Below, one piece after another: positions 4,955 to 32,765 of a DNA stretch of 48,966 nucleotides; the first letter of the stretch is position 1; every line of letters starts with the position of its first letter. Made by a program: the position numbers and the translations under genes. The notes under the pieces are model-generated. The model ran no database searches. It saw nothing but the letters and a program-made list of their open reading frames with translations, and was not told where the DNA came from. Source of the stretch: an uncultured Eubacteriales bacterium (GTDB taxonomy: Bacteria; Bacillota; Clostridia; Christensenellales; Aristaeellaceae); NCBI GenBank assembly GCA_902798105.1, contig CADBVG010000002.1:1-48966 (forward strand), in the 5' to 3' direction.

Positions 4955-4988
4955 TGTATTCTCCATATCATTAATACATCATTTGTCG

Positions 4989-7382: not shown

Positions 7383-8753
7383 TTAAACCACCTCGTGGTT
7401 TACCATGCCGCCGAACAGGGTCTTGAACAGTATCCTTATATCCAGCCCGAAGGACCAATTTTCAATGTACCAAATGTCGTGTTCGATGCGTTTGGGGATG
7501 CTGGTATCTCCCCGGTATCCATTCACCTGGGCCCAGCCGGTGATGCCCGGACGGACCTGGTTTTTCACCATATAAAGCGGTACCGTCTCGCGGAATCGCT
7601 CCACGAAGAAGGGAATCTCCGGCCGCGGCCCCACCAGGCTCATATCCCCCCGCAGCACGTTCCACAGCTGTGGCAGCTCGTCCAGGCTCAGCTTGCGCAG
7701 CAGCGCCCCGAAGGGCGTGCGACGGTCGTCCGCATCGGTAGACCAGGCCGTGTCCTGCCCGTCGTTCACCCGCATACTGCGGAACTTCAGCATTGTGAAG
7801 GGCTTCTTGTTGAGACCCACCCGCTCCTGCCTGAACAGCACCGGGCCCGGACTGGACAGCTTGATCGCGATGGCGATGACCAACAGCAGCGGGCTGAGCA
7901 CAATCAGCGCCAGCGCGCTGACAATGATGTCAAAGGCCCGCTTCAGGCCCGCGTTGAAGGGCTCGTCCAGGGGCGTGGTGCGCAGCTGGATCAGTTTGAT
8001 GGAGCCGATGTTGTCGATATTCGCACGGGTGGGAATCACGTCGTTGTAGAAGGGAATCACGCTGACCTTGGTGCCGCTCTTCTCGCACAGCTGTATGACC
8101 TGTACCGTCACGCCCAGCTCCTCGGGCTCCAAGGCCAGAATCACCTCGTCGATGCCCTCCCCGTGCAGCTGGGCCTCCAGCCATTCGACCCAGTCCTTTC
8201 CCCGGGGTGGAATGATGGCCGCCAGGTGTACGCCCAGTGACTTGTCCTTTTCCACCGCCTCGGCGTAACGCTTGGCCAGATGCCCGCCGCCCACCACCAG
8301 GTTATGCTTGAGGTTGTAGCCCTTTGAACGGTAGTAGCGCAGCGTGTAACGGACCACCAGGCGCTTGCCGATCATCGTAACGACGACGGTGATGTAGTAG
8401 ATACCCAGCACGCCACGGGAGAATTCCTGCAAGCGGAACAGGTACAGCAACGCCGCCGCTGTGACCACCGCGATCAGGTTGCCCAGGGCGATGTTCCGAA
8501 GCTCAGTACTCAGCTTTTTGATGCGCGTGACCCGGTAGACCCGCAGCATTCCAAGCACGATGACCGTCCACACCGCGTATAGCGCAGCCACCATGGCGGT
8601 ACCGTTGCGCAGGTTCGCCAGCGAAGCCATGTTCGGATTCTTCGTCACCACCCCCAGCCACAGCCAGGAAGCGAACACGTAGGACAGGAACACCAGCAGC
8701 GCGTCGGTGAGTATGTTCAGTCGGTTCAGTTGTTTTTGATTGCGTCGTATCAT
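7383..8753 (-). CDS. Polyprenyl-phosphate sugar-1-phosphate transferase (WcaJ/CpsE-type initiating enzyme)
   Basis: This enzyme transfers a sugar-1-phosphate to undecaprenyl phosphate to start repeat-unit or polymer synthesis in the inner leaflet. The N-terminal half has several hydrophobic helices (DALLVFLSYVFASWLWLG onward) and a nucleotide-binding-like CoA_binding_3 region (NLVVGGGHLAKRYAEA). The C-terminal PGT domain starts at KRAFDIIVSALALIVLSP and contains LFRQERVG, FTMLKFRSM, LDELPQLWNVLRGDMS and RPGITGWAQVNG, all typical. The length of 456 residues is normal. It is the last gene of the cluster, 20 bases after the preceding transferase. Its sugar is not predictable from sequence; glucose or galactose phosphate is usual. 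Confidence 0.9.
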   Translation of the reverse strand: MIRRNQKQLNRLNILTDALLVFLSYVFASWLWLGVVTKNPNMASLANLRNGTAMVAALYAVWTVIVLGMLRVYRVTRIKKLSTELRNIALGNLIAVVTAAALLYLFRLQEFSRGVLGIYYITVVVTMIGKRLVVRYTLRYYRSKGYNLKHNLVVGGGHLAKRYAEAVEKDKSLGVHLAAIIPPRGKDWVEWLEAQLHGEGIDEVILALEPEELGVTVQVIQLCEKSGTKVSVIPFYNDVIPTRANIDNIGSIKLIQLRTTPLDEPFNAGLKRAFDIIVSALALIVLSPLLLVIAIAIKLSSPGPVLFRQERVGLNKKPFTMLKFRSMRVNDGQDTAWSTDADDRRTPFGALLRKLSLDELPQLWNVLRGDMSLVGPRPEIPFFVERFRETVPLYMVKNQVRPGITGWAQVNGYRGDTSIPKRIEHDIWYIENWSFGLDIRILFKTLFGGMVNHEVV

Positions 8754-12571: not shown

Positions 12572-12614
12572 ATCCTATTCCCCTTGTTGCGCATCTGAAT
12601 GGATTTCATTTCCG

Positions 12615-13964: not shown

Positions 13965-13965
13965 A

Positions 13966-15806: not shown

Positions 15807-15857
15807 GGAATCTCGTCTCCTTTTCCTCATAACGCTTCGGCGCTGTTTGACGAAAGG

Positions 15858-16343: not shown

Positions 16344-17290
16344 CGGTTATTCCCCCATAGTTTCAATCGCTTCTCACCGGCAACCCGCTGCAGCTGCATC
16401 TCAAAGTCCTGCCGGTTCTTCTGAACCATCGTTTGCAGCATCAATCCCGCGAAAAAAGCGTGTACGGAGGACAGCATTGTAAACCCACATACGATCAGGG
16501 TCGGGAAATTGGGCACCAGTCCCGTCCGGAGATACTCCACCAGTACAGGAATAAAGAATACCAACGAAATCAGCGCCAATATCGTAGCGATAATCCCAAA
16601 GAAGCTCAGCGGCTTGTAATTTCTGTACAGCCGCGCGATGGTTCTGAGCACCCGCATGCCGTCGGAATAGGTGTTCAGCTTCGATTCGCTGCCGGCAGGG
16701 CGATCCCGATAGTTGATCACCACGTTTTCGACATACATGTTCTTGTCCACTGCGTGAATGCTCATTTCCGTCTCGATCTCAAATCCCTTTGAGAGCACCG
16801 GGAAGGTCTTGACAAACTCATAGCTGAAGGCGCGATAACCCGTCATGATGTCCTTGATGCCGTTCTTGAACAGTATGTTGATGCTCTTCCTGACGATCGA
16901 ATTGCCAAAGTTGTGGAAGGGGCGCTTGTTCTCCTCAAAGTAAGTTGACGAAAGCCTGTCTCCCACGACCATGTCGACGTTTTTGTTCAACACGAGCTCC
17001 GCCATCTCCCGGGCGTTCTCGGCGGGGTAGGTGTCATCGCCATCCGTCATGATATAGCACTGGGCGTCTATATCGCGAAACATCCGGCGGATGACGTTCC
17101 CCTTGCCCTGCATATACTCATTGCGAACAATCGCCCCAGCCTTCTCCGCAAGCTCCGCGGTCCTGTCGGTGGAATTGTTGTTGTACACATAGATCGCCGC
17201 TTCGGGCAGCGCTCTCTTAAAATCCCCTACCACCTTCTCCACGGTCTTTTCCTCGTTGTAGCAGGGAATCAATACCGCGATCTTATCCAT
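16340..17290 (-). CDS. GtrB/DPM1-like family 2 glycosyltransferase
   Basis: It begins IAVLIPCYNEEKTVEKVV and contains YNNNSTDRTAELA and TDGDDTYPAENA as donor and metal motifs. A C-terminal hydrophobic hairpin (FFGIIATILALISLVFFIPV and IVCGFTMLSSVHAFFAGLML) anchors it in the membrane. Such enzymes form polyprenyl-phosphate sugars. It shares ATGA with gtrA and precedes it in transcription; 36 bases separate it from the large membrane protein upstream. Together the three match the three-component layout used for adding side sugars outside the membrane. The sugar is unknown. Confidence 0.88.
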   Translation of the reverse strand: MDKIAVLIPCYNEEKTVEKVVGDFKRALPEAAIYVYNNNSTDRTAELAEKAGAIVRNEYMQGKGNVIRRMFRDIDAQCYIMTDGDDTYPAENAREMAELVLNKNVDMVVGDRLSSTYFEENKRPFHNFGNSIVRKSINILFKNGIKDIMTGYRAFSYEFVKTFPVLSKGFEIETEMSIHAVDKNMYVENVVINYRDRPAGSESKLNTYSDGMRVLRTIARLYRNYKPLSFFGIIATILALISLVFFIPVLVEYLRTGLVPNFPTLIVCGFTMLSSVHAFFAGLMLQTMVQKNRQDFEMQLQRVAGEKRLKLWGNNR

Positions 17291-17326
17291 AGCGTCTCTC
17301 TTTCTTATGTTATATAATTATTGCCA

Positions 17327-19504
17327 TCAACCATCTGATCCGTCCATGCCAGGATCTACGTCCGATTTCTCGTACAACACACGGTATACCTTGTAGTCGC
17401 CTTGTCGCGCCACTCTGTCAAAGCGAACGCTTTCAGTATTTAATTTCTGTAAATTATTCTCTGTCAAAATATAATCCACGCCCAATTTCGGCAGATCGTC
17501 CGGGTTCAGCTTCAAAACAAATTGGTCTGGCGCGATGCCATTTTCAAAGCACGTCTCTTCCCCCACCAGTTTCACACTTATGTGCGCATACCGGTTATAT
17601 ACATCCTCATACGCGCCGTCCCTGTCAATTTTTTTCCATAAATCCATGTGGGGATATACATTGGTACTATTGAGGGTCCTTGCGCCAACAACCATTATGG
17701 AATTGATTATAGGATACGAGTTTTCCACAAGCCAGCAGGCATCCTTCGATTCTTCCACAATCGGCTTTACAAGCCGTGTCACAGGATTGTCTGTGATTTC
17801 TGAAGAGCCAACCTGAACAGGGTTCACAAACAAGCCTCCGATTACAGTCACACTGGCCACACATACCCACAAGAGGTTCGCCATATACCGGTTATTCCCG
17901 ATAAAAAACGCGGCCAGGGAAACGCTGAGAGTCAACGCAAATACTATCGCCAGCATTTCCGCCGTATAATAGACTCCAAGATAAACATGCGCGGCATAGG
18001 GAACCGCCACGCTTATGATAAGGGTCAGGAGTATTCCGTAACCCCATTTCACTGAATCCCTTGCAATGGCCATTTCCCGAAACAGCAGTAACATCTGTGC
18101 CATCATCAATATTGGCAGTGCGCGTCCGGCCATTGAAAAGCGCATCAGAGAGATGTTCAGCAGTGTTTCATTAAAGCCTGCAAAGCAATAGAGTCCCAGG
18201 AATACCGATACAATAACAAGCCCTGCGGACAATGCGTCTATCTTCCGTCTGCGCAGGGAATTAAACGCGAACAGAACAAGCCCCAACGGAAAGAAGCTAA
18301 TGAAACTTGCCGCTTCACAGACATTTGAGTTCGGGATATCGCCTCTAAAGGCACTGAACAGTCCGACCGGGTAGGTGAAGAGGCTCCATATGGATATCGT
18401 ATCCATTCCAACCCTTCTGCCCGGATACACCGTATTCATGACAAGCTTGATCGTGTCTTTGGATTTAAAGAACACATATCCCAATCCCAGTGCCATCAGC
18501 ACAATCGTTTCAAGCAAAACCAGAGCGTCTTTTCCTGTCAGCCGCATGGTTTTTCTGTTCCGGATAACCGTCCATATCACAAGAGCAAGCATGACATAGG
18601 AAATGGGCACGAGCCAGGCCGGATAGAACGTCAGTATGTACGATATACCCAGCCACGCAACAATCACGCCATACCGCGCTCTCCTGCCATAATCGGACGT
18701 CTGCAGGTATTGGTTGAAAACCAGAACCGCCGAAAAGCCAAATACCAGCATCTCAACAAGCCCATTGATCGCAAACCACCATTGCACAAACGGCGCAAAC
18801 GCAATCATGAGCGAAAGCATCAGAGACAACCCGCGTTTGTTGTCCAAGATCAGCATGCCCAGGTCGAAGCTTATCAAAACCAATGCCACAAGGCGCGCCA
18901 TCCAAAAAAAGGCCAGCCCCGCCTCTGCGCCCAATAACAAGTAGCCCCAGTGGAACGGTCTGAAGATCGCGGCGATGTCCAATACCGGTTGGCCATAGAC
19001 AATAAACGCATCCAAACCAGCCCCTATGACCGGGGAAAAATAATTGAATCCCGAAGCGGCCTGCGCAAAGGCCATGGGCGTATTCAGCCCCCATTCATCG
19101 CTGCGTATCGGCCGTGACCGGCCAAAAAAAACACCATTCGAGCTTCCACCGAGGTAGTCAGCCCAAATATGGACCGACGAACCGCTCACTTTCAGCGCCA
19201 CCATGACGATAACGAATACGGCCCCGATCACATATCTCCACTTGTAGACAAAATCGGCAATACGGTTTCCGGATCTGCGGCAGATGCGTAACGTCATAAA
19301 TGAAATGACGATCAAGCCAAGAAAAGCAATCAGATGATGTCCGTTCAATACAGGCAAAACAGCCGCCAGACCATCGGCATATTCCACGACGCCCATGGAT
19401 CTCCAGACCACCAGGAACAACGTCGTATATGCCGATACAAGCAGAGCAATGAGCAGATCAAGAAGCAACCGGCTCGTCCTGCTTTGCGAGGTATTGGTTA
19501 CCAT
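17327..19504 (-). CDS. Large polytopic membrane protein, probable GT-C-type glycosyltransferase
   Basis: About 725 residues with a dozen or so hydrophobic helices in the N-terminal two thirds and a soluble, probably extracytoplasmic C-terminus of about 170 residues (from about SSEITDNPVTRL). An acidic and tryptophan-rich first loop (SSVHIWADYLGG, RSDEWGLNTPMAFAQAA) has the look of a GT-C catalytic loop. No named family is certain. Its position before a GtrB-like enzyme and GtrA suggests it is the serotype-specific transferase of a Gtr trio. The start at 19504 has a G-rich ribosome site about ten bases upstream; in-frame ATGs at 19513 and 19525 are alternatives. Confidence 0.7.
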   Translation of the reverse strand: MVTNTSQSRTSRLLLDLLIALLVSAYTTLFLVVWRSMGVVEYADGLAAVLPVLNGHHLIAFLGLIVISFMTLRICRRSGNRIADFVYKWRYVIGAVFVIVMVALKVSGSSVHIWADYLGGSSNGVFFGRSRPIRSDEWGLNTPMAFAQAASGFNYFSPVIGAGLDAFIVYGQPVLDIAAIFRPFHWGYLLLGAEAGLAFFWMARLVALVLISFDLGMLILDNKRGLSLMLSLMIAFAPFVQWWFAINGLVEMLVFGFSAVLVFNQYLQTSDYGRRARYGVIVAWLGISYILTFYPAWLVPISYVMLALVIWTVIRNRKTMRLTGKDALVLLETIVLMALGLGYVFFKSKDTIKLVMNTVYPGRRVGMDTISIWSLFTYPVGLFSAFRGDIPNSNVCEAASFISFFPLGLVLFAFNSLRRRKIDALSAGLVIVSVFLGLYCFAGFNETLLNISLMRFSMAGRALPILMMAQMLLLFREMAIARDSVKWGYGILLTLIISVAVPYAAHVYLGVYYTAEMLAIVFALTLSVSLAAFFIGNNRYMANLLWVCVASVTVIGGLFVNPVQVGSSEITDNPVTRLVKPIVEESKDACWLVENSYPIINSIMVVGARTLNSTNVYPHMDLWKKIDRDGAYEDVYNRYAHISVKLVGEETCFENGIAPDQFVLKLNPDDLPKLGVDYILTENNLQKLNTESVRFDRVARQGDYKVYRVLYEKSDVDPGMDGSDG

Positions 19505-19604
19505 CGCCTTCATTCCCCCCTTCATCCGCGTCCGACATGCACAGCAACGGATTCACGCCTTCGGAACATACCGCACAGTACGGCGGCAGTTTGACCCTTT
19601 GGGT

Positions 19605-20516
19605 TTATTGGATAGCCCTCAGATACCGCCCCACCGCGTCCTTCCAGTCCGGCAGCGGTATGAACCCGTTCTCTGTCAGCTTTTTCTTGTCCAGGCGGCT
19701 GTTGAAGGGGCGGGCGGCCTTGGACAGGCCGTATTCGGCGGTGGTCACCGGGGTGACGGTCACGTTCATGCCGGCCTGGCGGAAGATCTCTTTCGCGAAA
19801 TCGGCCCAGCTGATGTAGCCGCCCTCGTTGGTGGCGTGGTAATAGCCGTACTTTTCCGTTTCGATCATGTCCACCAGCAGGCGGGCCAGGTCGAGGGTAT
19901 AGGTGGGCGTGCCAATCTGGTCGTTGACCACCCGCAGGTTGTCGTGGGTCTGGCCCACCTTCAGCATCGTCTTGATGAAGTTGTTGCCATTCAGGCCGAA
20001 CACCCAGGCGATGCGCACGATGAAGAACTTCTCCACCAGTTTCTTCACCGCCAGCTCGCCGCCCAGCTTGCTCTCGCCGTACACGTTCAGCGGCGCGTAA
20101 TCGGGGCAGTCCGGCTGCCAGGGATCGGTGCCCTGGCCGTTGAACACGTAGTCCGTGCTGATATACATCATCTTGCAACCCAGCGCCCTGCAAACCTCGG
20201 CGATGTGGCGGGTGCCGTCCACGTTGATGGCCCGCACCCTGGGGCGGTTCGCCTCGTCCTCGGCGGCGTCCACCGCCGTCCAGGCCGCGCAGTGGATCAC
20301 CGCGTCCGGCTTCACGTCGTTCAGCACGCGGCTGACCGACGCGGCGTCGGTGATGTCCATCTGCACATAGGGCATGGCGCACACCGCACTGCCGTCCTGT
20401 ATGCCGCTGTAGGCCGGGGCGATATCGCTGCCCACGCCCGCGTGGCCCCGCTTTGCCAGCTCGTTCATCACATCGTGGCCCAGCTGGCCGCCGACGCCCG
20501 TCACAAATATCTTCAT
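19605..20516 (-). CDS. rfbD: dTDP-4-dehydrorhamnose reductase
   Basis: The last step of dTDP-L-rhamnose synthesis. The nucleotide site is KIFVTGVGGQLGHDV, the STDYVF block matches the family's MYISTDYVFNGQG motif, and the catalytic Tyr/Lys are in YGESK. The C-terminal part (GIPTYTLDLAR-like GTPTYTLDLARLL, RPFNSRLDKKKL) is also diagnostic. At 303 residues it is slightly long but complete. It follows rfbB by about 65 bases on the same strand; rfbA and rfbC are about 7 kb upstream in the same cluster. Confidence 0.95.
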   Translation of the reverse strand: MKIFVTGVGGQLGHDVMNELAKRGHAGVGSDIAPAYSGIQDGSAVCAMPYVQMDITDAASVSRVLNDVKPDAVIHCAAWTAVDAAEDEANRPRVRAINVDGTRHIAEVCRALGCKMMYISTDYVFNGQGTDPWQPDCPDYAPLNVYGESKLGGELAVKKLVEKFFIVRIAWVFGLNGNNFIKTMLKVGQTHDNLRVVNDQIGTPTYTLDLARLLVDMIETEKYGYYHATNEGGYISWADFAKEIFRQAGMNVTVTPVTTAEYGLSKAARPFNSRLDKKKLTENGFIPLPDWKDAVGRYLRAIQ

Positions 20517-21641: not shown

Positions 21642-24557
21642 TTATAACGGATCAAACATCGGTGAATCGAGCGAGAGATTGGGGCTGAAGTACGGGTCGC
21701 CCGCTTCCAAAACGTCGCTCCACTTTTCCCTGAAATGGCCGACTTCCCGCTTGAAGCGTTCAAGCTTTTCGCCCGTTTCGTAGCCGCGGGACGCTGATTC
21801 GTAGTGGTACACCTCAACAAAGGGGGTGAATATGTTCAGGTACCCCTGCGCCCTGAGCTTCAGGCAGAAGTCAACGTCGTTGTAGGCCACCGCGAAATTC
21901 TCGTCAAGGCCACCTACCTCGTCGTATTTGCGCCTTTGTATCATCAGGCAGGCAGCTGTAACGGCTGAAAAATCCTGAGCATAGCACAAGCGGCCCATAT
22001 ATCCGATATGATCGTGATTCGCACCGTAGTAGGCATGGGCCGCAATGCGGTCGTCACCCATCTTGATCACAACGCCGGCGTGCTGAATCCTCCCATCTGG
22101 GAAATACAGCTTCGCGCCAACAGCGCCAACGTCGTCGCGCTGAGCGTACATCATCAGGTTTTCCAGCCAGTCGGGGGTGATGATCTCGGTATCGTTGTTC
22201 AGCAGTACGATGTATTCCCCGTCACATTGACGGACTGCCCAGTTGTTGATCTTCGAATAATTGAACGGGCCCGCATAGCGCAGCACGCGAATATTCCCGA
22301 GCCGTTCAAGCCGTTCATAATATTCGAATATACTATCCGTCTCACTGTTGTTTTCAACGACGACGATTTCATAATTCCGGTAGGTGGATTTTTCGACGAT
22401 GGAGCGAATGCATCGCTCCAGGTCCTCGATGTGATCCTTGTTGGGAATGACAATGCTCACCTTCGCCTGGTCCCGAAGGGGGTATATGATCCGGAAAATC
22501 GTCGGAAACGCCCGTGTGCTCTCTATAACCGTGTCCACATGCTGATAATCCCAAAGGAAATCATGCACGGCGCGCTTGGCCGCGTCCACGGCATACTGCT
22601 TGGCGCCGATGTCCTGGGATACGGACTGCGGATGCGAGCGCCACCAATACAGTACCTTGGGAATGTGAACCACCTTGTTGGCCGCATGGGTCAGCCGGAG
22701 GATGATATCGTGATCCTGGCTGCCGTCATAATCGCTCCTGAAGCCACCAACTTCCTTCAGCAGCTGTGCCGAAAAGGCTGAAAAGTGACAGATATAGTTG
22801 TTGGCCAGCAGATTGTCCGGCGCGTAATCCGGCTTGTAGTGTACCGTAATGAATTTGTTCCGATCTGGCGACGCAAAGGTCACCTCGTCTGTATAGATAT
22901 AATCAGCATCCTGTTCGCAGATTGCCTTCATCATCTCATACAATGCCGAGGGATGCAGCAGATCGTCATGGTCAAACAGCGCAATATAGTTCCCCGTCGC
23001 CATCTCGATGCAGGCGTTTGTATTCCCGGAAATGCCGAGGTTCTTTTCCAGCCTGCGATAGCGAATGCGGCTATCCTTCCTGGCAAGCGAGCGGCAGATT
23101 TTCCCAACGAACGCGTGAGCTTCATCGCTGCCATCCGCCAGGCAGAGCTCCCATTTTCCATAGGTCTGTTCCTGGACGGAATTGATCATCTCATGGAGAA
23201 AATCCTCCGGTGTATTGTAGAGCGGAACCAGTATGCTGAAGGTAATGTCCTTTGGGAAGACTTCACTACGCTGCCTGGCCATTTCCGCCTCGGACGGCCA
23301 TGCATGGGCTCTCAACGCCTTCTGCTTCGCCTCAAGATAGTTCCTGCGGTTTTTCAAAGCGTAACCGGGGCCGTGGCGCATCGTGTCCTTTGCGGTTCGG
23401 GCATACAGATACAAGGTTTCGTTATTCCTGACAAGCCGCTTCAGCCTATCCATCAGCACCCTTGCCGGCTTGGTGATACGCCAGAAGAAAGCGGTGGAAA
23501 TTGTCTGGTAGTCCAAGGTCAGCTTTTGGATCTGGGCATTCTGATTGCCGATATGGACATCCTTATCATGGATGATACCATCCTTCGCCGCGACGAGCGC
23601 CTGCATATCCCGGTTGGCCTCTTCCAGAGAGCCGATATATACATCCTTGTCACGGATGATGCCATCCTTCGCCGCGACGAGCGCCTGCATATCCCGAATG
23701 GTCTTTTCCTGCGAACCGATGTGAACATCCTTGTCGTGGATGATGTTCCTTTTAGCCGCGACATCCGCGCCCATGGCCTGCATTTCCCGCTCCATGTCCC
23801 CGATAAACCGGTTCTGCTTCCTGTAGCGTTCCGAATAAATGTATTTTCGACCCTCACCGTGGACATATTGCTGGAAATGATCATCCATCTTCCAATAGAG
23901 CGCACACTCACGTTCAGAGAAGCCGAACCAGCTGAGCATCTCCTCCAGGCTTGTCCCGTTCAGCATTTCGTGGACCTGAGTCACATACAGGTACAGCAAA
24001 ATCCTATATTTGATATAGGCAAAGGGCACGGGAAAATGACAGACCCATTCGCAATCAATGCAGTACGTGCCGGTGTCGTTTTCAACGAAATTCGTCAGCA
24101 GCGAATCGATGTTGGCAGGATTCAGTGCGGGTACTTCGCCAGGCTCCGCTTCACCAAAGATGGCTTTAAACTCGTCAGTCATCTTGAATGAAACAAAATA
24201 CCTCTCCTGTATGGACAGCACCGTCGCCAGCGCTTCATTCACCCGCGCGACAAAGCGGGCCTTGTCAAAATCCTGTGCTTCGATTCGCTCCGCCAGCGTC
24301 TGGCCCTCGATGCAGGTAAATCTCAGTTCCCCTTCCACCTTCTCAGGCGGCACGACCTTGATCGTCCGATAATAATCCTGGAGAACGATGCTGTTTTTAC
24401 AGATATTCTCCAGGTGATTTTCGGCTGCAGCCTCTGCCGCGCGTTTGCGGACAAAGACACCGTTCGCGTCCTCGCAAAACTCCGTCGTGATGCGAAAATC
24501 AGGTCTGCGCGCCGAGTTGTATTTGGCGTACAGTACCTTGCAAGTCTGATGAGCCAT
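21642..24557 (-). CDS. Kinase-like, coiled-coil repeat and double family 2 glycosyltransferase fusion protein
   Basis: A 971-residue fusion of three parts. Residues 1-245 look like an APH/choline-kinase-type fold: possible nucleotide lysine K38 (VFVRKRA), hinge-like FTCIEGQTL, catalytic-loop-like NIDSLLTN (D151, N156; the usual His is Asn) and IDCEW (D168) in place of DFG. Residues about 245-350 form a coiled coil with near-identical 28-residue repeats (HDKDVHIGSQ, RDKDVYIGSL, HDKDVHIGNQ). Two GT-A domains follow: about 438-640 (FSILVPLYNTPEDF, DHDD at 529-532) and about 698-930 (KVSIVIPNKDHIED, NNDT at 787-790). The gene starts with one shared base after the methyltransferase stop and near wzt/wzm. 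A WbdD-like terminator/ruler joined to a polymerase is the favoured reading; the kinase assignment is inference. Confidence 0.75.
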   Translation of the reverse strand: MAHQTCKVLYAKYNSARRPDFRITTEFCEDANGVFVRKRAAEAAAENHLENICKNSIVLQDYYRTIKVVPPEKVEGELRFTCIEGQTLAERIEAQDFDKARFVARVNEALATVLSIQERYFVSFKMTDEFKAIFGEAEPGEVPALNPANIDSLLTNFVENDTGTYCIDCEWVCHFPVPFAYIKYRILLYLYVTQVHEMLNGTSLEEMLSWFGFSERECALYWKMDDHFQQYVHGEGRKYIYSERYRKQNRFIGDMEREMQAMGADVAAKRNIIHDKDVHIGSQEKTIRDMQALVAAKDGIIRDKDVYIGSLEEANRDMQALVAAKDGIIHDKDVHIGNQNAQIQKLTLDYQTISTAFFWRITKPARVLMDRLKRLVRNNETLYLYARTAKDTMRHGPGYALKNRRNYLEAKQKALRAHAWPSEAEMARQRSEVFPKDITFSILVPLYNTPEDFLHEMINSVQEQTYGKWELCLADGSDEAHAFVGKICRSLARKDSRIRYRRLEKNLGISGNTNACIEMATGNYIALFDHDDLLHPSALYEMMKAICEQDADYIYTDEVTFASPDRNKFITVHYKPDYAPDNLLANNYICHFSAFSAQLLKEVGGFRSDYDGSQDHDIILRLTHAANKVVHIPKVLYWWRSHPQSVSQDIGAKQYAVDAAKRAVHDFLWDYQHVDTVIESTRAFPTIFRIIYPLRDQAKVSIVIPNKDHIEDLERCIRSIVEKSTYRNYEIVVVENNSETDSIFEYYERLERLGNIRVLRYAGPFNYSKINNWAVRQCDGEYIVLLNNDTEIITPDWLENLMMYAQRDDVGAVGAKLYFPDGRIQHAGVVIKMGDDRIAAHAYYGANHDHIGYMGRLCYAQDFSAVTAACLMIQRRKYDEVGGLDENFAVAYNDVDFCLKLRAQGYLNIFTPFVEVYHYESASRGYETGEKLERFKREVGHFREKWSDVLEAGDPYFSPNLSLDSPMFDPL
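23508..23759 (-). repeat. 84-bp in-frame tandem repeats coding for the coiled coil
   Basis: Three copies of an 84-bp unit (28 codons, four heptads) begin at residues 267, 295 and 323 of the fusion protein. On the plus strand GACGAGCGCCTGCATATCCC occurs at 23592 and again at 23676, exactly 84 bases apart, and the sequence around it is nearly identical. The third copy is more diverged. Such repeats can expand or shrink without a frameshift. Confidence 0.85.
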
Positions 24558-25489
24558 TATCGCGTGCCTCCTTCGCAGAGCACAAGGTAGGAATTGGCGA
24601 ACATTTCAAATTTACCCTCCCGGATCAACTCATTCATGACCTTTCCCTCGTCAAAGAAGGAGTAGCGTTCCCTGTCGTAATTGGGGGTGTTGCTTCCAAA
24701 GGGATACACCTTTGGAAGGTGGTATTGGGAGTATATTTCCGTGGGAAGCTTGTAATCCGGCAGTGGATAGTAGAACTCCAGGCCGGTGAAGCCCGCCTCA
24801 CGCAGCAGGGCCTCCAGGCCCTCCTTGGAGAAGGTGCGAACGCGCTCGACCCCCGGATAGCCCATGATGCCGTCCATCAGGTTGCCCGTATGGTCCTCAC
24901 GCGCTCCTGCCCAGTACTTGATGCCATACTTGTTCTCGATCGCGACGATCAGCCTGCCGCCGGGCTTCAGGTAGCTCTTCGCCTTCTTCAGCATGTCCAC
25001 GAAGGGGGATTCGCTGTTGATGTAGTAGATCGAGTACTCGAGCACGCCGATCAGCGTGACATAATCGAACTTTTCCTCAATTTGGATATCCTCGAAATTG
25101 CCGACCATGATCTCCAGGTTGTCAAAATCCCGGTTGCGCGTGGCGTTGATCGTGGACCTGCGCTTGGACAGGTCGATCGCAACCACCCGATCACACTTTT
25201 TGCAGAACAGGCCGGTGATGCCGCCGCAGCCGGCGCCGATCTCCAACAGCGATTTCCCCTCGCCAAAGTCATACCACTCCAGCAGGTTTTCGCGAATCGG
25301 AGAGAGGTGATACAGCAGCGCCCACTCGTTTTCCCGGGCCAGCACGTCCTCATAGGAATCGTTCTGACGGACGATTTGCAGCAGGGTATCCTCGATATCG
25401 CCATCGCTGTACTGGTCTGTCCCCTTGTAGTACTGATAATTCAGTGTGACCTTGCCGATGCTTTCGACGTTCTGATCGGTCATCGTCAT
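24557..25489 (-). CDS. SAM-dependent methyltransferase, possible chain-capping enzyme
   Basis: A class I methyltransferase of 310 residues. Motif I is SLLEIGAGCGGITGLFC, the acidic motif II end is VVAIDLSKRR, and YVTLIGVLEYS and LKPGGRLIVAIENKYG follow. The N-terminus has YYKGTDQYSDGDIEDTLL and a helical lead-in; the C-terminus ends with FANSYLVLCE. It overlaps wzt by four bases and shares one base with the kinase-like fusion gene. In E. coli O9a WbdD a methyltransferase and a kinase in one protein cap the polymer; here the two activities would lie in neighbouring genes. A role in methylating a sugar or a phosphate on the polymer end is inferred from the context. Confidence 0.82.
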   Translation of the reverse strand: MTMTDQNVESIGKVTLNYQYYKGTDQYSDGDIEDTLLQIVRQNDSYEDVLARENEWALLYHLSPIRENLLEWYDFGEGKSLLEIGAGCGGITGLFCKKCDRVVAIDLSKRRSTINATRNRDFDNLEIMVGNFEDIQIEEKFDYVTLIGVLEYSIYYINSESPFVDMLKKAKSYLKPGGRLIVAIENKYGIKYWAGAREDHTGNLMDGIMGYPGVERVRTFSKEGLEALLREAGFTGLEFYYPLPDYKLPTEIYSQYHLPKVYPFGSNTPNYDRERYSFFDEGKVMNELIREGKFEMFANSYLVLCEGGTR

Positions 25490-26799
25490 CTTCCTCCTAT
25501 GGCGTAATCAATCCGGGTCTGCATGTCAAAGAACCCCACCATCATCTTCCCGGAAGCCACGCGAATCAGGCACACATCATACAAGCGGTGATATACTTCA
25601 AAATTGCCGTCGTTGAAGCCTGTGCAGCCCAGGCAGAGCAGGTATTCGCCGCCCTTGAGGTTCATCTGCTGGGTGAAGGAAATGACGCGGATATCCCCAT
25701 CCTTCACATCCCCGGTATTATAGTCCTCATACATCGTATTCGTGCCGCAGATATCCGTGCCCTGCTTGTCCCGCAGGGTCAGCGCGAACACGGGCTCGCT
25801 GAGACTTTGATGGAACTGCACCTTCATACGAACGGTATAGGCCTCGTTTGCGCCGAGCACATTCGTGATGCGGCCCTTTTGATCCATCACGCAATAATCC
25901 AGTATCGTCGCCGCGCCGTTGCCGTAAGTTGAACACTTCGGGTTTTCCTCCATGTGCCTGCGCCACAGCTGATCATCCGAAATGACTGCAGCCGGCACAC
26001 CGGACGCAGCGTCTGTTCCCGACGCCTTTTGTACTTCGTCGGCGGTATCGGGCTCTTCCAGCCCCACCATGACCTTCTTATAGAGGTCGATCATGTCTTT
26101 CGGGGCGCCCTCCGCGAGCTTGCGCCCCTTGTCCAGCAACACGACCCTGTCGCAATACTTCTGGATGCTGCCCAGGTCATGGCTTACAAACAGGATCGTT
26201 CGCCCCTGCCTTTTGAATTCCTCGAATTTATGGTAGCACTTCACCTGGAAGAAGGCATCGCCCACGGACAGCGCCTCGTCGACGATCAGTATCTCGGGGT
26301 CGATGTTGATGGCCACGGCAAACGCCAGGCGCACGAACATGCCGCTGGAATAGGTCTTCACCGGCTGATACACGAAATCGCCGATATCGGCAAAAGCCAG
26401 TATATCGTTCAGCTTTTTGTCGATTTCCTCCCGTGAAAAGCCGATCATGGTGCCGTTCAGGTATACGTTTTCAATACCCGTGTATTCCATGTTGAACCCG
26501 GCACCCAATTCCAGCAATGCGGATATGCGCCCGTTTACGGTTATATTTCCCTCCGTGGGGTTCAATACGCCGGTGATGATCTTGAGTATGGTGGATTTTC
26601 CTGCACCGTTGACACCGATGATACCGACGGTCTCTCCCCGGCCAACCGAGAAACTGACATCCTGAAGGGCGTAATGCTCCTTATAATATACCTTGCGGGT
26701 CAGGGAAAAGGCTTCCTTTATTCTGTCCCTGGGCTTTTCATACAAACGATAGACCTTGCTGACATGGTCCACCTGAATCGTCGTCTCTCCCATCGCCAT
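25486..26799 (-). CDS. wzt: Polysaccharide ABC transporter ATPase with C-terminal glycan-binding-type domain (Wzt)
   Basis: The ATPase of an O-antigen/teichoic-type polysaccharide exporter. Walker A is GVNGAGKST (62-70), the signature is YSSGM (150-154), Walker B is ILIVDEA (170-176), and the switch histidine is H207. The N-terminus begins with the IQVDHVSKVYRLYEKP form found in polysaccharide exporters. An extra domain of about 160 residues (about 280-437) after an alanine-rich linker is of the beta-sandwich type by which Wzt proteins recognise the capped end of the polymer. GGAG seven bases before the ATG at 26799 supports the start. The presence of this domain next to a methyltransferase argues for cap recognition before export. 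Confidence 0.93.
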   Translation of the reverse strand: MAMGETTIQVDHVSKVYRLYEKPRDRIKEAFSLTRKVYYKEHYALQDVSFSVGRGETVGIIGVNGAGKSTILKIITGVLNPTEGNITVNGRISALLELGAGFNMEYTGIENVYLNGTMIGFSREEIDKKLNDILAFADIGDFVYQPVKTYSSGMFVRLAFAVAINIDPEILIVDEALSVGDAFFQVKCYHKFEEFKRQGRTILFVSHDLGSIQKYCDRVVLLDKGRKLAEGAPKDMIDLYKKVMVGLEEPDTADEVQKASGTDAASGVPAAVISDDQLWRRHMEENPKCSTYGNGAATILDYCVMDQKGRITNVLGANEAYTVRMKVQFHQSLSEPVFALTLRDKQGTDICGTNTMYEDYNTGDVKDGDIRVISFTQQMNLKGGEYLLCLGCTGFNDGNFEVYHRLYDVCLIRVASGKMMVGFFDMQTRIDYAIGGR

Positions 26800-26809
26800 C
26801 TCTCAACTC

Positions 26810-27640
26810 CTACAGCACATCGGCAAAATGTTTTTTCAGTCGCTTGAAAATAAGCAGTCCCAGGACCATGACCCCCAGCGCGACCGCCCAGAAATAGATC
26901 GTGAGCCTCGGGGTTTCCCAGAACCAGTGCTTGTTGATCAGCGCGTTCCTGTAGCCGCTTACGATATAATACATGGGGTTCAGCTTCAGTATGGTCTTCA
27001 GTATCCCATCGGATATGGCGGTTTCGATGTTCCACATGATGGGCGTCACCCAGATCAGAATTTGAAGCAATATATTGATGATTTCCGAAAGGTCTCTGAA
27101 AAAACCTACGATTGACGCTGTTATATAGCTCAAGCCCAGTACGAGGACGAATGTGGCAAAGGAATAGTAGACGACCTGCAGGGAATAGAGATCGGGCGCA
27201 TATCCATAAGCCCAGAATATGGCCAGTGTCAGTACCACAAAGAAGATGTGTACATATATGGATGCTACAACCTTGACAACCGGCAATATGCTGATTTTAA
27301 AGACGACCTTCTTGACCAGGTAGCTGTAGCTGATCAGGCTGCCGGTGCCATTCGGCCAGGCATCGGAAAAGTAAAACCAGGGCACAAGACCGGAAATCAG
27401 AAACAGCACAAAGGGCACCTCCACGCCGCCCATTGCCTGCCTGCCGGCGCGCAGGCCCTTCTCAAAGACAAACCAATACACAAATACAGTGATTACCGGC
27501 TGGACAAACGCCCAAAAAACGCCCATCATCGATCCGGCGTAGCGGGTCTTGAAGTCGTTCTTGGAGAGGCTAAAAATCAACTGACGATTGTGCCACAGGT
27601 CTGCGATCATGTTGAAAATCGACTTAATCCTGCGAATCAT
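26810..27640 (-). CDS. wzm: Polysaccharide ABC transporter permease (Wzm)
   Basis: The ABC-2 type membrane subunit that exports the lipid-linked polymer together with Wzt. It begins MIRRIKSIFNMIADLWHNRQ and has the typical LSKNDFKTRYAGSMMGVFWAF lead-in to the first helix. Six hydrophobic segments follow, and the conserved tail region LNPMYYIVSGYRNALI is present. ATG at 27640 has GGAG eight bases upstream; the frame is open further upstream to 27694, but that part has no ribosome site. It ends ten bases before wzt. Confidence 0.92.
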   Translation of the reverse strand: MIRRIKSIFNMIADLWHNRQLIFSLSKNDFKTRYAGSMMGVFWAFVQPVITVFVYWFVFEKGLRAGRQAMGGVEVPFVLFLISGLVPWFYFSDAWPNGTGSLISYSYLVKKVVFKISILPVVKVVASIYVHIFFVVLTLAIFWAYGYAPDLYSLQVVYYSFATFVLVLGLSYITASIVGFFRDLSEIINILLQILIWVTPIMWNIETAISDGILKTILKLNPMYYIVSGYRNALINKHWFWETPRLTIYFWAVALGVMVLGLLIFKRLKKHFADVL

Positions 27641-27700: not shown

Positions 27701-28264
27701 TCAGATTTCACCGTATACGAAATTGCAGTCGCTGTCATCCAGCAGCGGCGAAGTGGTGTCCTTCTGGCTGAGCAGCGACTCGACGACCTCGCCCCATTCC
27801 ACGCCGATACTCGGATCGTTGAAGCGGATGCCCCGGTCGCATTCCCTGCTGTATAGGTTGTCCACCTTGTAGCAGAATTCCACGTCATCCGTCAGCGTCC
27901 TGAAGCCGTGGCCAAACCCCCGGGGAATCATCAGCATCCGCTTGTTTTCCGCCGACAGCTCCACGGAAATCCACTGCCTGTAGGTGGGACTTCCCTTTCG
28001 AAGGTCCACGGCCACATCCAGCACCGCACCCCGGGTCACGCGCACCAGCTTGGCCTGGGCCATCGGCGCGTTCTGGAAGTGAATGCCTCTCAATATGCCC
28101 TTCTGGGACGAAAAGGACTGGTTGTCCTGCACGAAGTTATAGTGCAGGCCCATTTCCTCAAAGTTCCGGGTGGACCATGTTTCCATGAAATAGCCGCGCT
28201 GGTCGCCGAACACCTGGGGTTCGATGATATACACGCCAGGCAGCTTTGTCTCTATCTTCTTCAT
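27701..28264 (-). CDS. rfbC: dTDP-4-dehydrorhamnose 3,5-epimerase
   Basis: The cupin-fold epimerase of dTDP-rhamnose synthesis. Family blocks are GVYIIEPQVFGDQRGYFMET, QDNQSFSSQKGILRGIHFQ with the catalytic His, DLRKGSPTY, and MLIPRGFGHGF. The length of 187 residues is normal. Its ATG begins in the last base of rfbA (ATGA-type overlap), so the pair is translated together. Confidence 0.95.
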   Translation of the reverse strand: MKKIETKLPGVYIIEPQVFGDQRGYFMETWSTRNFEEMGLHYNFVQDNQSFSSQKGILRGIHFQNAPMAQAKLVRVTRGAVLDVAVDLRKGSPTYRQWISVELSAENKRMLMIPRGFGHGFRTLTDDVEFCYKVDNLYSRECDRGIRFNDPSIGVEWGEVVESLLSQKDTTSPLLDDSDCNFVYGEI

Positions 28265-29151
28265 CAGTAGCGCACCCTTCCTTCCGCAACCGCCTTCAGA
28301 TGATCACCGTAGGGGCTCTTCCCATAGCGCTGGGCGGATTCCATCAGCTTTTGCTTTGTGATCCAGCCGTTCCTGTAGGCAATCTCCTCCGGCGCGGAGA
28401 TTTTGATGCTCTGCCGCTGCTCGATCATGCGCACGAAATCCGCCGCCTCCACCAGGGAATCCATCGTGCCGGTATCCAGCCAGGCGAAGCCGCGGCCCAG
28501 CAGCTGAACGTCCAGCAAACCCTGCTTCAGGTACATGTCGTTCAGCGTGGTAATCTCCAGTTCGCCACGGGCGCTTGGCGCCACCTGGCGGGCCATTCCA
28601 GATACGCCCTTGGGATAGAAGTACAGTCCCGTGATGGCATAATTGCTCTTGGGCCGTGCCGGCTTCTCCTCCACCGAAACGACCTTCCCTGCCTCGTCGA
28701 ATTCCACGATGCCGAAGCGCTCCGGGTCGTTGACATAGTAGCCGAACACCGTCGCCCGGCCATCTTTTTCAGCGTCTGCCGTGGCAGCCCGCAGGATCTT
28801 ACTGAAGCCGTTGCCATAGAAGATGTTGTCGCCCAGTACCATCGCGCAGGCGTCGTCGCCTATGAAATCCTCGCCCAGAAGGAACGCCTGAGCCAGCCCA
28901 TCCGGCGAAGGCTGCACCACGTAGCTCAAATTCAGGCCAAACTGGCAGCCATCGCCCAACAGATGCTCGAAACGGGGCGTGTCCTCCGGTGTGGAGATGA
29001 TCAGTATCTCCCGAATGCCCGCCAGCATCAGCGTGGAAAGGGGATAGTAGATCATCGGCTTGTCATAGACCGGCAGTAACTGCTTCGACGTCACCATGGT
29101 CAACGGGTATAGCCGCGTGCCGGCGCCGCCGGCGAGTACGATGCCCTTCAT
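28264..29151 (-). CDS. rfbA: Glucose-1-phosphate thymidylyltransferase
   Basis: The first enzyme of dTDP-L-rhamnose synthesis. [18 protein letters not shown] is the nucleotidyltransferase motif, followed by [19 protein letters not shown]. Other family blocks are [27 protein letters not shown], and [16 protein letters not shown] precedes the ATG. The length of 295 residues is standard. Confidence 0.96.
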
Positions 29152-30606: not shown

Positions 30607-31794
30607 TCAGCCTTGCCTATGTTTTACGATGCCCTGTGTTCGCGTTATGGCCGCATCCACAAGGCCCGATAGTCCATAGCCCTTTACCTTTGTGACCATG
30701 CGCTTCAGCACATTCCAAACTTTCATAAAGCCCAGCCAACGACACTTGACGGTCCCCGTCGTATCCAACCGCGTCGGATCCGGCAGCGCTGCCTCCAGTT
30801 CTTCGGCGCTTCTTTGCAGGCTCATGTATTCCCCGGCACAGAGTATCGCCTTCCTGCGGCAATCCTCACGCCTGTCTGAATCTTCAATCAGGTCGCTCAG
30901 CGCTTTGATCCAACTCTCGGACGTGTTTTCACAAAGTACCGCACAATTATCAAAGGCCTTGAGCCGCACATAGGGCTGCACATCTGAAAACACCCCCGCA
31001 ACCCCTGCCGCGGCGTATTCGCTGAACTTGTTGTAGTGTTTGCAGGCGTGAAAGGGGGTATCCGGCATCGGCGCCAGTCCGATATCCCACTGCAAGGTAT
31101 TCAACGTCCGCCGGTAGTCATCGTAGGAATCAATATAGGGAATGCACCGCGCGCCCAGGCGTTCGGCAAATCCCGGCTTTGCGCCCAAAAACTCAAAGGC
31201 AACAGCACCACCATACCTGTCCCTGGTCTGTATCAGCGCGTCCCTGAGGACATTCTCTATGTCGCCGATCCGGTCAATCGAGCCCGCGAAGCCGATCTTC
31301 ACCGGCCCGCCGGGCTCCCGCGGGCGGTACGCCACCGGATCGATGGTGGGCTCCTCGACCTGTATCGCCCGCTTGCCCGAAGCGTACTTCTCCAGCAGCA
31401 GCGGGGATGGCGAGATGACGGCGTCGCTGAGGTCGATCATGCCCCGGATATAGGCCTGTATCTGCCTTTGGCCATAATACCTGGCGCTACTGACCTGGGA
31501 CGGAATGTTCAACAGGTCGTCATCCAGAATATAGGCGATGTATCTCCCCGCCCCGCGGGCCATTTGAGCCAACTGATATTCGTACCAGCTGTCCAGCCTG
31601 CCCAGCAGCACGATATCCGCCCAATTGATATCCTGGACCCGGAGCTTCAACTCCTGAACCGCGCGGTATTCCAGCCTGCCCCGGGTCGCCAGGTATTCCA
31701 TCTGGCAGTGGCCGCACAGCCGCACCGACGGGGTCAATGCCCGGTATATCAACAGAACCCGGCGCTTTCCCGCGTTTCTATCCCGCCCGGTCAT
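30607..31794 (-). CDS. GT-B fold glycosyltransferase (family 1/4-like)
   Basis: A cytoplasmic retaining-type transferase. After the N-terminal RRVLLIYRALTPSVRL region come AYILDDDLLNIP and a C-terminal Rossmann half (VKIGFAGSIDRIGDIENVL). HACKHYNKFSEYAAAGVAGVF is the donor-binding helix region with the conserved glutamate typical of GT4 enzymes. ATG at 31794 is preferred to 31893, which would overlap the previous gene by 64 bases; the ribosome site (AAGGA) is close to the ATG, so the start is uncertain. The sugar is unknown, and its place beside rhamnosyltransferases suggests a linker or backbone sugar. Confidence 0.78.
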   Translation of the reverse strand: MTGRDRNAGKRRVLLIYRALTPSVRLCGHCQMEYLATRGRLEYRAVQELKLRVQDINWADIVLLGRLDSWYEYQLAQMARGAGRYIAYILDDDLLNIPSQVSSARYYGQRQIQAYIRGMIDLSDAVISPSPLLLEKYASGKRAIQVEEPTIDPVAYRPREPGGPVKIGFAGSIDRIGDIENVLRDALIQTRDRYGGAVAFEFLGAKPGFAERLGARCIPYIDSYDDYRRTLNTLQWDIGLAPMPDTPFHACKHYNKFSEYAAAGVAGVFSDVQPYVRLKAFDNCAVLCENTSESWIKALSDLIEDSDRREDCRRKAILCAGEYMSLQRSAEELEAALPDPTRLDTTGTVKCRWLGFMKVWNVLKRMVTKVKGYGLSGLVDAAITRTQGIVKHRQG

Positions 31795-31829
31795 TTCCTT
31801 GGCCCTTTCATTCCCATTGTCCGCGACAA

Positions 31830-32765
31830 TCAGCCCAGCAGGGCCATGCCGGCCTTCCGCTTCACGCCGTGTATCAGCCCGAGGTGCCGCCAATAGAAGG
31901 CCAGGCCGCTCCTGGGCTTCTCAAATTGGACCAGGAACCGCTCGTCCTGGGGCCCAAGCTCATCCCGATAGGCCAGACGAAACGCCCGGGCCTGCGCCTT
32001 TTTCCCCAAAATCGAGTGGCGCACGCTGCCAATTGCGCCCAGGCGGTCCAGCGCGTACGCCGCGCTTCCGACATTCTTCGCGCCGACAGCGTTTTCACCG
32101 TGCTGGCGATAGACGCCCAGCGGCTCGTCGATGTAGATAATCTTTCCAAACCGGGCCGCCACAACGGCGAGCCACCAGTCGTGCATGATGATTCCGGGGG
32201 TATCTCCCCTGCCCCCTGCCAGACGGACCAGCGCCTTGTTGACGCCCATCGCGCCGCCGGTGACCACGTTCTGCATCAGCAGGCTTCGATAGTCGAAATG
32301 GCTGAAGTACTGGCCCTGATAGCGCATCAGCGATGGCGCGAGCGGCTTCAGTTCGGCATCGGTGGGGGTCTGGTCGCTGAATACCAGCACCGGCATATCC
32401 CTCCCCCATTCCGTTTCCGCGTCTTCGAGGGCCTTCCGCGTCTTGAGCACCTTGTCGGGATACCACACGTCATCCTGATCGCAGAACAGCATATAATCCG
32501 CGTCACACCGGGCCATCAAGTAAAAGAAATGATCCCGGGCATTGCCGAAGCGCCTGCCGGAGTGGTAACGCGCAATCCGGTCCGGGTACCGGCGAACGTA
32601 GTCGTCGATAATCGCCCCGGAGCCGTCCGTGGACCCGTCGTCGGAAATCGTCAGGCGCCACCGCCCGTCGCTCTGGCACAGTATGGAATCCAGCTGCTCC
32701 GGGAGGAAGGCCTCGCCGTTGTAGACGGCCATCAGGATCTCCAGCGTCCTGTCGCTCCTATTCAT
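31830..32765 (-). CDS. Family 2 glycosyltransferase, rhamnosyltransferase-like
   Basis: About 311 residues. The donor region is ILMAVYNGEAFLPEQLDSIL and ISDDGSTDGSGAIID; FCDQDDVWYPDK carries the DQDD motif common in RgpA/RgpB-type rhamnosyltransferases. A hydrophilic C-terminal region with RAFRLAYRDELG follows. ATG at 32765 overlaps the previous gene by eight bases and has a GGAG site eight bases upstream; the frame extends to 32903 without one. The presence of dTDP-rhamnose genes makes rhamnose the likely donor. Confidence 0.82.
   Translation of the reverse strand: MNRSDRTLEILMAVYNGEAFLPEQLDSILCQSDGRWRLTISDDGSTDGSGAIIDDYVRRYPDRIARYHSGRRFGNARDHFFYLMARCDADYMLFCDQDDVWYPDKVLKTRKALEDAETEWGRDMPVLVFSDQTPTDAELKPLAPSLMRYQGQYFSHFDYRSLLMQNVVTGGAMGVNKALVRLAGGRGDTPGIIMHDWWLAVVAARFGKIIYIDEPLGVYRQHGENAVGAKNVGSAAYALDRLGAIGSVRHSILGKKAQARAFRLAYRDELGPQDERFLVQFEKPRSGLAFYWRHLGLIHGVKRKAGMALLG

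What the first reader, a model, noticed from the sequence alone, without database searches (positions are those of the whole stretch)
21642..27640. Split WbdD-like chain terminator and ruler in an apparently single-membrane bacterium
Four adjoining genes (wzm, wzt with a C-terminal glycan-binding-type domain, a methyltransferase, and a kinase-like/coiled-coil/double-glycosyltransferase protein) copy the logic of the E. coli O9a system. There WbdD (methyltransferase, kinase, coiled coil) caps the polymer, sets its length and hands it to Wzt. Here the capping methyltransferase is a separate protein, the kinase-like domain and ruler are fused to polymerising-type GT domains, and no outer membrane is indicated. 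The motifs are seen; the ruler and cap functions are inferred by analogy with WbdD and Wzt.
Basis: partly seen in the sequence, partly recalled or inferred. Interest (0 to 1): 0.88.

Follow-up and report, generated by a model that had tools for sequence, protein, structure and literature searches.

The report
Split sugar-chain capping enzyme, gut Firmicutes
A rumen-type bacterium with a single membrane carries the parts of a machine that builds a surface sugar chain, appears to cap it with a phosphate-based tag, and hands it to an exporter; the closest tested relative is in Klebsiella, and here the capping enzyme is cut into two proteins.

Summary

The analogy needs correcting. The nearest characterised system is not WbdD but Klebsiella O7 ORF6 (MT-kinase-coil-GT2-GT2, methylphosphate cap on rhamnose). 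A Pseudomonas protein carrying O7's published SAM-site residues is 40% identical to the window's GT-GT region and collinear through the kinase. Of the 80 best named relatives, 74 are Bacillota and 79 have MT plus kinase, fused in 31; fusion/fission needs 16 changes on a tree, so the split is not special. Methyl-capped (Geobacillus) and phosphate-capped (C. difficile) ABC-exported glycans are already known in single-membrane bacteria.

What seems new: candidate capping enzymes for Firmicutes, and coil "rulers" that vary by whole heptads (21-aa unit, 2 versus 6 copies in 88%-identical genes). Function is inferred.

The parts
26810..27640 (-). wzm: ABC transporter membrane subunit, 276 aa
   Evidence: PF01061 E 2.1e-14; NCBIfam galactan_ABC_perm 1.1e-14, below its cut-off
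25486..26799 (-). wzt: ABC ATPase with C-terminal glycan-binding-type domain, 437 aa
   Evidence: PF00005 2.3e-23, PF14524 Wzt_C 9.7e-39; best PDB sequence match 8dku E 7e-87
25522..25932 (-). Wzt C-terminal (carbohydrate-binding-type) domain, residues 290-426
   Evidence: PF14524; profile A6 of 35 tails hits 2r5o E 1.1e-17, 8dku 1.9e-9, 5hno 2.4e-6
24557..25489 (-). MT: SAM-dependent methyltransferase, 310 aa, proposed second capping step
   Evidence: PF08242 3.4e-11; A2 alignment; aligns with a Pseudomonas protein that has the O7 ORF6 SAM-site residues
21642..24557 (-). kinase-coil-GT2-GT2 protein, 971 aa
23823..24557 (-). kinase domain, residues 1-245; K38, D151, N156, D168, E170, W171 invariant
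23547..23745 (-). 84-bp (28-aa, four-heptad) tandem repeat in the presumed coiled coil, 2.4 copies, residues 271-337
   Evidence: TRF, 85% matches, score 293; residues; crude period scan 6.4-6.9
22755..23237 (-). first GT2 domain, residues 441-601
   Evidence: PF00535 1.5e-46 for the whole protein
21792..22460 (-). second GT2 domain, residues 700-922
   Evidence: PF13641 3.4e-23 for the whole protein; GT-GT region 40.5% identical over 531 aa to L105
20583..21602 (-). rmlB-type dTDP-glucose 4,6-dehydratase
   Evidence: PF16363 7.4e-88; 92-97% identical in genus relatives; the name rmlB is recalled
19605..20516 (-). rmlD, dTDP-4-dehydrorhamnose reductase
   Evidence: PF04321 RmlD_sub_bind 1.3e-89
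27701..28264 (-). rmlC, dTDP-4-dehydrorhamnose 3,5-epimerase
   Evidence: ORF; name recalled from sequence and place, not searched; 88-91% identical copies in relatives
28264..29151 (-). rmlA, glucose-1-phosphate thymidylyltransferase
   Evidence: ORF; name recalled from sequence and place, not searched; 85-93% identical copies in relatives
7383..8753 (-). probable initiating polyprenyl-phosphate sugar-phosphotransferase
   Evidence: PF02397 2.6e-72; TIGR03023 WcaJ_sugtrans 436 bits, over cut-off

Best explanation
This is the polymerase-terminator-exporter core of an ABC-transporter-dependent, probably rhamnose-containing surface glycan in a single-membrane Clostridia-class bacterium. It is of the Klebsiella O7 ORF6 kind, here divided into two proteins. 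A sugar-phosphotransferase starts the chain on a polyprenyl carrier. The two GT2 domains of the 971-aa protein extend it from dTDP-rhamnose. When the chain end reaches past the coil it meets the kinase at the N-terminus, which phosphorylates the terminal sugar. The separate MT, recruited to the kinase, methylates that phosphate. Wzt's C-terminal domain recognises the capped end, and Wzm/Wzt exports only finished chains. The coil length sets the minimum chain length. Shown here by sequence or prediction: the domains, the kinase fold, catalytic-type residues, Wzt-tail homology, gene order, fused relatives, heptad-sized repeats. Inferred: phosphorylation of the sugar end, methylation of that phosphate, coil formation and ruler function, recognition by Wzt, rhamnose as the polymerised sugar. 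The final acceptor is open: the genome has two LCP-family genes, one Wzy_C-family gene on another contig and no SLH domain found.
Against: No biochemistry, no glycan structure; the O7 sequence itself was not available, L105 is a proxy. The HRD-type His is replaced. The Geobacillus chain is capped by plain 2-O-methyl (PMC2943079) and the C. difficile one by cyclophosphate (PMC6254364), so methylphosphate cannot be assumed. The coil was not modelled and its 3.5-residue signal is not clear. In 4 of 64 loci with Wzm the linker is short (65-72 aa in L027, L029, L030, L040); behind L027 and L029 no GT partner follows. One of 80 loci (L025) has MT and no kinase after it. L023, a fused family relative, has a Wzt of only 243 aa, too short for a tail. 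L015 has MT and kinase but no Wzm or Wzt in its 14.9 kb. L104 has E in place of the second catalytic Asp.
Confidence: 0.7

Rival explanations
1. The kinase-like domain is a scaffold or acceptor-binding pseudokinase, and the MT methylates a sugar hydroxyl directly, as Geobacillus WsaE does (2-O-methyl cap).
For: WsaE: MT plus two GTs, 2-O-methyl cap, ABC export in a Gram-positive (PMC2943079 passages). E. coli O8 WbdD has no kinase (PMC3482155 passages). HRD-type His replaced.
Against: K38, D151, N156, D168 are invariant in 79 of 79 sequences, unlikely for a pseudokinase; closest folds are small-molecule kinases such as APH(3'); the O7 protein has proven kinase activity (PMC11231755).
Confidence: 0.14
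2. The kinase makes a phosphate or 2,3-cyclic-phosphate cap, as on the C. difficile SLCT-11 S-layer glycan, and the MT acts elsewhere or on an intermediate.
For: A terminal 2,3-cyclophospho-rhamnose was assigned on a rhamnose-rich, ABC-exported glycan of a single-membrane Clostridia member (PMC6254364, section 14 and passages).
Against: MT is next to or fused to the kinase in 79 of 80 loci (the loci were chosen by MT), and O7 gives methylphosphate. Whether the SLCT-11 locus encodes this pair could not be tested: that strain was not reached in any collection.
Confidence: 0.12
3. It is a WbdD orthologue split in two.
For: Same order of parts; Foldseek ranks WbdD 4th, 8th, 11th and 27th for the fused relative, alignments running over both domains.
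Against: WbdD absent from the rows shown in PDB sequence-profile searches; TM 0.21-0.28 and rmsd 18-19, and a Rickettsia lysine methyltransferase (5dpl, 5doo) gives equally long, equally poor alignments; best kinase folds are APH; an O7-type relative is clearly closer.
Confidence: 0.06
4. The coil region is only a spacer or dimerisation handle and does not set chain length (compatible with the capping reading).
For: Short linkers in 4 of 64 loci with Wzm; no chain-length data; no dedicated coil prediction.
Against: Repeats in multiples of seven residues in 9 of 11 linkers with repeats; in O9a and O12 the coil is reported as an established ruler (PMC11231755 section 13).
Confidence: 0.3

Closest known systems
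Klebsiella pneumoniae O7 ORF6 (methyltransferase-kinase-CBM-coiled coil-GT2-GT2 terminator/polymerase; PMC11231755)
   Different: MT and kinase are separate proteins; only about 25 residues between kinase and repeat, so no place seen for the immunoglobulin-like CBM; single-membrane host; glycan unknown
E. coli O9a WbdD (4azs; PMC3482155)
   Same: Order MT-kinase-coil in fused relatives, predicted function, Foldseek match E 2e-9 to 3e-8
   Different: No sequence relation found; poor superposition (TM under 0.3); polymerising GTs are in WbdA; WbdD is one protein
Geobacillus stearothermophilus WsaE and the slg cluster (PMC2943079)
   Same: Gram-positive, rml genes, WbaP-type initiation, Wzm/Wzt, MT joined to two rhamnosyltransferases
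C. difficile SLCT-11 S-layer glycan locus (PMC6254364)
   Same: Single-membrane Clostridia member, ABC export, rhamnose-rich, phosphate-type cap
   Different: 2,3-cyclophosphate; the main text holds neither 'methyltransferase' nor 'kinase'; locus sequence not available here
Klebsiella O12 WbbB (PMC11231755 passages)
   Same: Terminator, coil and two polymerising GTs in one chain
   Different: Terminator is a Kdo transferase

Membership tests
O7 ORF6-type methyltransferase-kinase terminator | Class I MT with the Y28/Y66/G91/G93/E112/Y158 SAM-site pattern | tested here: met
   L105 has all six at the same numbers and aligns with the window MT: Y27, Y60, G85, G87, Y152, and D106 for E112
O7 ORF6-type methyltransferase-kinase terminator | Small-molecule-kinase (AmiN/APH-like) domain with catalytic Asp | tested here: met
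O7 ORF6-type methyltransferase-kinase terminator | Two GT2 modules C-terminal to the kinase | tested here: met
   two GT2 domains, collinear with L105 and 40.5% identical
O7 ORF6-type methyltransferase-kinase terminator | Coiled coil between kinase and GT modules | tested here: inconclusive
   four-heptad repeat, but period scan 6.4-6.9 and no coil predictor or model
O7 ORF6-type methyltransferase-kinase terminator | MT and kinase in one polypeptide | tested here: not met
   Separate genes in the window; fused in 31 of 80 named loci. Hence filed as a variant
O7 ORF6-type methyltransferase-kinase terminator | Immunoglobulin-like CBM after the kinase (present in O7; its authors knew of none in other terminators) | tested here: inconclusive
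   about 25 residues lie between kinase and repeat; the rest of the linker was not modelled
O7 ORF6-type methyltransferase-kinase terminator | Methylphosphate on the terminal rhamnose, needed for export | not testable with these tools
   needs enzyme assay or glycan analysis
WbdD (O9a) family | Sequence relation to WbdD | tested here: inconclusive
   not among the rows shown of PDB profile searches (60 of 85; 13 of 13; 60 of 116)
WbdD (O9a) family | MT-kinase two-domain fold | tested here: inconclusive
   Foldseek E 2e-9 over both domains, but TM 0.22/0.28, rmsd 18, and lysine methyltransferase PKMT2 aligns equally long; run on fused relative L030, not on the window pair
Wzt with C-terminal glycan-binding domain | Wzt_C domain | tested here: met
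   PF14524 133 bits against cut-off 30.4; profile of tails hits 2r5o E 1.1e-17
Wzt with C-terminal glycan-binding domain | Binds the capped chain end | not testable with these tools
   needs binding assay
WsaE | MT fused to two GTs in one protein | tested here: not met
   MT is a separate gene in the window; WsaE itself was not available to compare

The most novel reading that the evidence does not exclude
Phosphate-based chain capping with a coiled-coil ruler is a general device of single-membrane gut Firmicutes, and the ruler is genetically adjustable: tandem repeats of whole heptads (21 or 28 aa) are gained and lost between close relatives, so each lineage can reset the length of its surface glycan by repeat number while capping enzyme and exporter stay the same.
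Probability: 0.3. Interest if true: 0.75.

Novelty: new variant of a known kind. Interest (0 to 1): 0.57.

Why it matters
If right, it names candidate enzymes for phosphate-type caps in Gram-positive glycans (a terminal phosphate was reported in C. difficile and, in the parts read, left without an enzyme), extends the polymerase-terminator model, tested in Gram-negative O antigens, to Lachnospiraceae, Paenibacillus and other Firmicutes, and offers natural pairs of genes that differ mainly in ruler length. It also places a domain for which Pfam and NCBIfam list no model.

Tried and rejected
WbdD orthology: profile searches of PDB sequences with A1, A4 and A5 did not list WbdD among the rows shown; the kinase-only VIA list (50 rows) and the fused VIA list (50 rows) do not show it either, which does not exclude it. 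Foldseek does list it for the fused model (ranks 4, 8, 11, 27 of the 50 rows shown), but PKMT2 of Rickettsia (5dpl, 5doo) has equally long alignments with like TM and rmsd, so I do not take it as proof of a shared two-domain fold.

Kinase recognition by sequence alone: no Pfam/NCBIfam kinase match; best PDB profile hit JAK1 E 0.03, not significant.

Coil versus exporter: of 5 loci without Wzm despite more than 8 kb on each side, 3 have almost no linker after the kinase (L074 7, L098 7, L091 25 aa), L037 has 54 and L076 166; the shortest among 64 loci with Wzm is 65. I first tested linker under 80 aa (4 of 5 versus 4 of 64, Fisher p 4e-4), then the near-absent ones (3 of 5 versus 0 of 64, p 2e-4). 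Both thresholds were chosen after looking and the loci are related, so I treat it as a hint. L037's tail looks coiled by eye.

Tree: the 16 changes of the fused/split state are fewer than in shuffled labels (mean 29.7, 0 of 500 as low), so the state is also inherited, not random. The tree is the quick kind, with 34 of 89 inner branches unresolved.

WsaE and C. difficile SLCT-11 sequences: not reached in any collection. PMC10433991 (E. coli group 3 capsules with a gene called wsaE; passages) and PMC3898925 (WsaF; passages) were looked at and not followed. Mann et al. 2019 (Glycobiology), the survey most likely to hold prior art on Firmicutes, is not in the library; I saw it only in a reference list. 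The ruler paper PMC4650267 is not held either.

Rows dropped: L018 (contains X; left out of A2, A3 and the tree); L031 (kinase cut by contig end); L025 (no kinase); L085 and L038 (left out of A4). L013 lies inside L024 and was not counted twice.
Full report
What is there. The window is a whole contig (C2) of a 3.24-Mb, 146-contig genome, 89.7% complete. On the minus strand, 27640 to 21642 encode Wzm (276 aa), Wzt (437 aa), a methyltransferase (MT, 310 aa) and a 971-aa protein with two GT2 domains; rmlC/rmlA lie upstream and rmlB/rmlD downstream (the names rmlC and rmlA are recalled, not searched). Wzt and MT overlap by ATGA, MT and the 971-aa gene by TAATG. The genome has Spo0A; neither Omp85 nor LpxC was found, as expected of a single-membrane Clostridia member. 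The genus relative L013 lies inside L024, titled an uncultured Clostridiales bacterium.

Is the Wzt tail a glycan-binding domain? Wzt_C scores 133 bits against a cut-off of 30.4. A profile of 35 tails (window plus 34 of the 53 cut out) hits 2r5o E 1.1e-17, 7k2t/8dku 1.9e-9 and 5hno 2.4e-6. From memory, 2r5o is the O9a and 5hno the O12 Wzt tail.

Relatives in the same genus and family. Of 60 genomes searched with the kinase domain, 12 match, own genome included. Four of the same genus keep MT separate from the kinase (L013, L014, L015, L022). Six have one MT-kinase protein: L016, L017, L019, L020, L021 (same genus) directly after Wzt, and L023 (same family) one gene after a short, tail-less Wzt. 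One more hit (L018) contains X and was set aside. L014 is split three ways: MT, kinase, coil-GT-GT; L015 shows no Wzm/Wzt. So the window's MT and kinase are halves of what is elsewhere one protein.

Wider relatives. A kinase profile hit follows MT or is fused to it in 79 of 80. Architectures (80 loci): fused MT-kinase without GT 28; fused with GT 3; separate MT with kinase-GT 21 (1 truncated); separate MT with kinase but no GT2 found 27 (1 truncated); no kinase 1. Two of the 'no GT2' proteins are long (L083, L101) and may carry GTs my model missed. Wzm and Wzt within 10 kb: both in 67, Wzt alone in 6, neither in 7; several of these lie at contig ends. In drawn samples the MT is uncommon: 24 of 391 genomes of the window's class, own included, and 8 of 398 of the class of Schinkia, itself included. 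On a 92-row MT tree (91 with a state) the fused/split state needs 16 changes, at least 9 on well-supported branches, against 29.7 for shuffled labels.

WbdD. For the fused relative L030 (31-row alignment, pLDDT 90.2, pTM 0.90), Foldseek lists WbdD 4azt, 4azs, 4ax8 and 4uw0 at E 2e-9 to 3e-8 with 546-616 columns over both domains; most other rows are methyltransferases over about 200-320 columns, but Rickettsia PKMT2 (5dpl, 5doo) also reaches 613-616. TM-scores to WbdD are 0.21-0.28 and rmsd 18-19, so the domains do not superpose as one body. WbdD is a good functional analogy; a shared two-domain fold is not shown.

Prior art in single-membrane bacteria. Geobacillus WsaE caps an ABC-exported polyrhamnan with 2-O-methyl (PMC2943079 passages). 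C. difficile SLCT-11 carries an ABC-exported S-layer glycan ending in 2,3-cyclophospho-rhamnose; its authors compared this with O9a, and in the parts read no capping enzyme is named (PMC6254364 section 14 and passages). My searches listed no paper on a Firmicutes methyltransferase-kinase terminator (listings only, except the papers named); the main survey (Mann 2019) is not held, so novelty is provisional.

The ruler. The window's coil region has a 28-aa repeat. Among 86 kinase ORFs with a linker of at least 30 aa (count), 11 linkers carry a tandem repeat, and 9 of the 11 best periods are multiples of 21 bp, against 27 of 139 array rows elsewhere in the same loci, rows that may overlap (Fisher p 4e-5). 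Exceptions: L067 (30 bp) and L044 (15 bp). L016 and L017 are 87.8% identical over the first 1892 bp, yet one has 2 and the other 6 copies of a 21-aa unit, a difference of exactly 84 aa; L021 has 4, L019 6, L020 none. These are contigs of fragmented assemblies, so collapsed repeats are possible. No dedicated coil predictor was run, and the window's period scan was not classical.

Verdict. A real, well-ordered capping, polymerising and export operon; a split variant of the O7 type, found across many Firmicutes and, so far as I could search, not described there.

Noticed in passing
window 9760-15830 (-): Glucose-1-phosphate cytidylyltransferase, CDP-glucose 4,6-dehydratase, RfbH, an acetolactate-synthase-like TPP enzyme and an epimerase-like gene in a row: looks like a CDP-3,6-dideoxy, branched-chain (yersiniose-type) sugar pathway (recalled), so the glycan may carry such a side sugar.
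   Followed up: partly
window 15858-19525 (-): GtrA-like protein, a GT2 and a DUF7657/DUF7654 protein in a row, resembling a three-component side-branch glycosylation set that would act after export (recalled).
   Followed up: no
window 30607-31893 (-): Protein with only a sub-threshold Pfam hit and no NCBIfam hit, conserved at 49-69% beside the operon in seven relatives (L013, L016, L017, L019-L022).
   Followed up: no
L074, L098, L091: MT and kinase with almost no linker (7, 7, 25 aa) and without Wzm in loci with over 8 kb on each side; L098 carries CDP-glycerol glycerophosphotransferases instead. The pair may also cap non-ABC polymers.
   Followed up: partly
L016 8473-10485 and L017 8561-10825: Close MT-kinase-coil genes (87.8% identical DNA over 1892 bp) with 2 versus 6 copies of a 21-aa coil unit: a natural ruler-length pair.
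   Followed up: yes
L101 and L040: The same gene set in contigs titled Methanomassiliicoccaceae archaeon and Alistipes sp.: gene transfer or wrong binning.
   Followed up: no
window 3830-4966 (-): FRG-domain protein (PF08867, 2e-20), often linked with phage defence (recalled).
   Followed up: no
L104 11959-13908: Citrobacter braakii conjugative plasmid with an rml-bearing ABC-type glycan locus whose MT-kinase-like protein has E in place of the second catalytic Asp.
   Followed up: no
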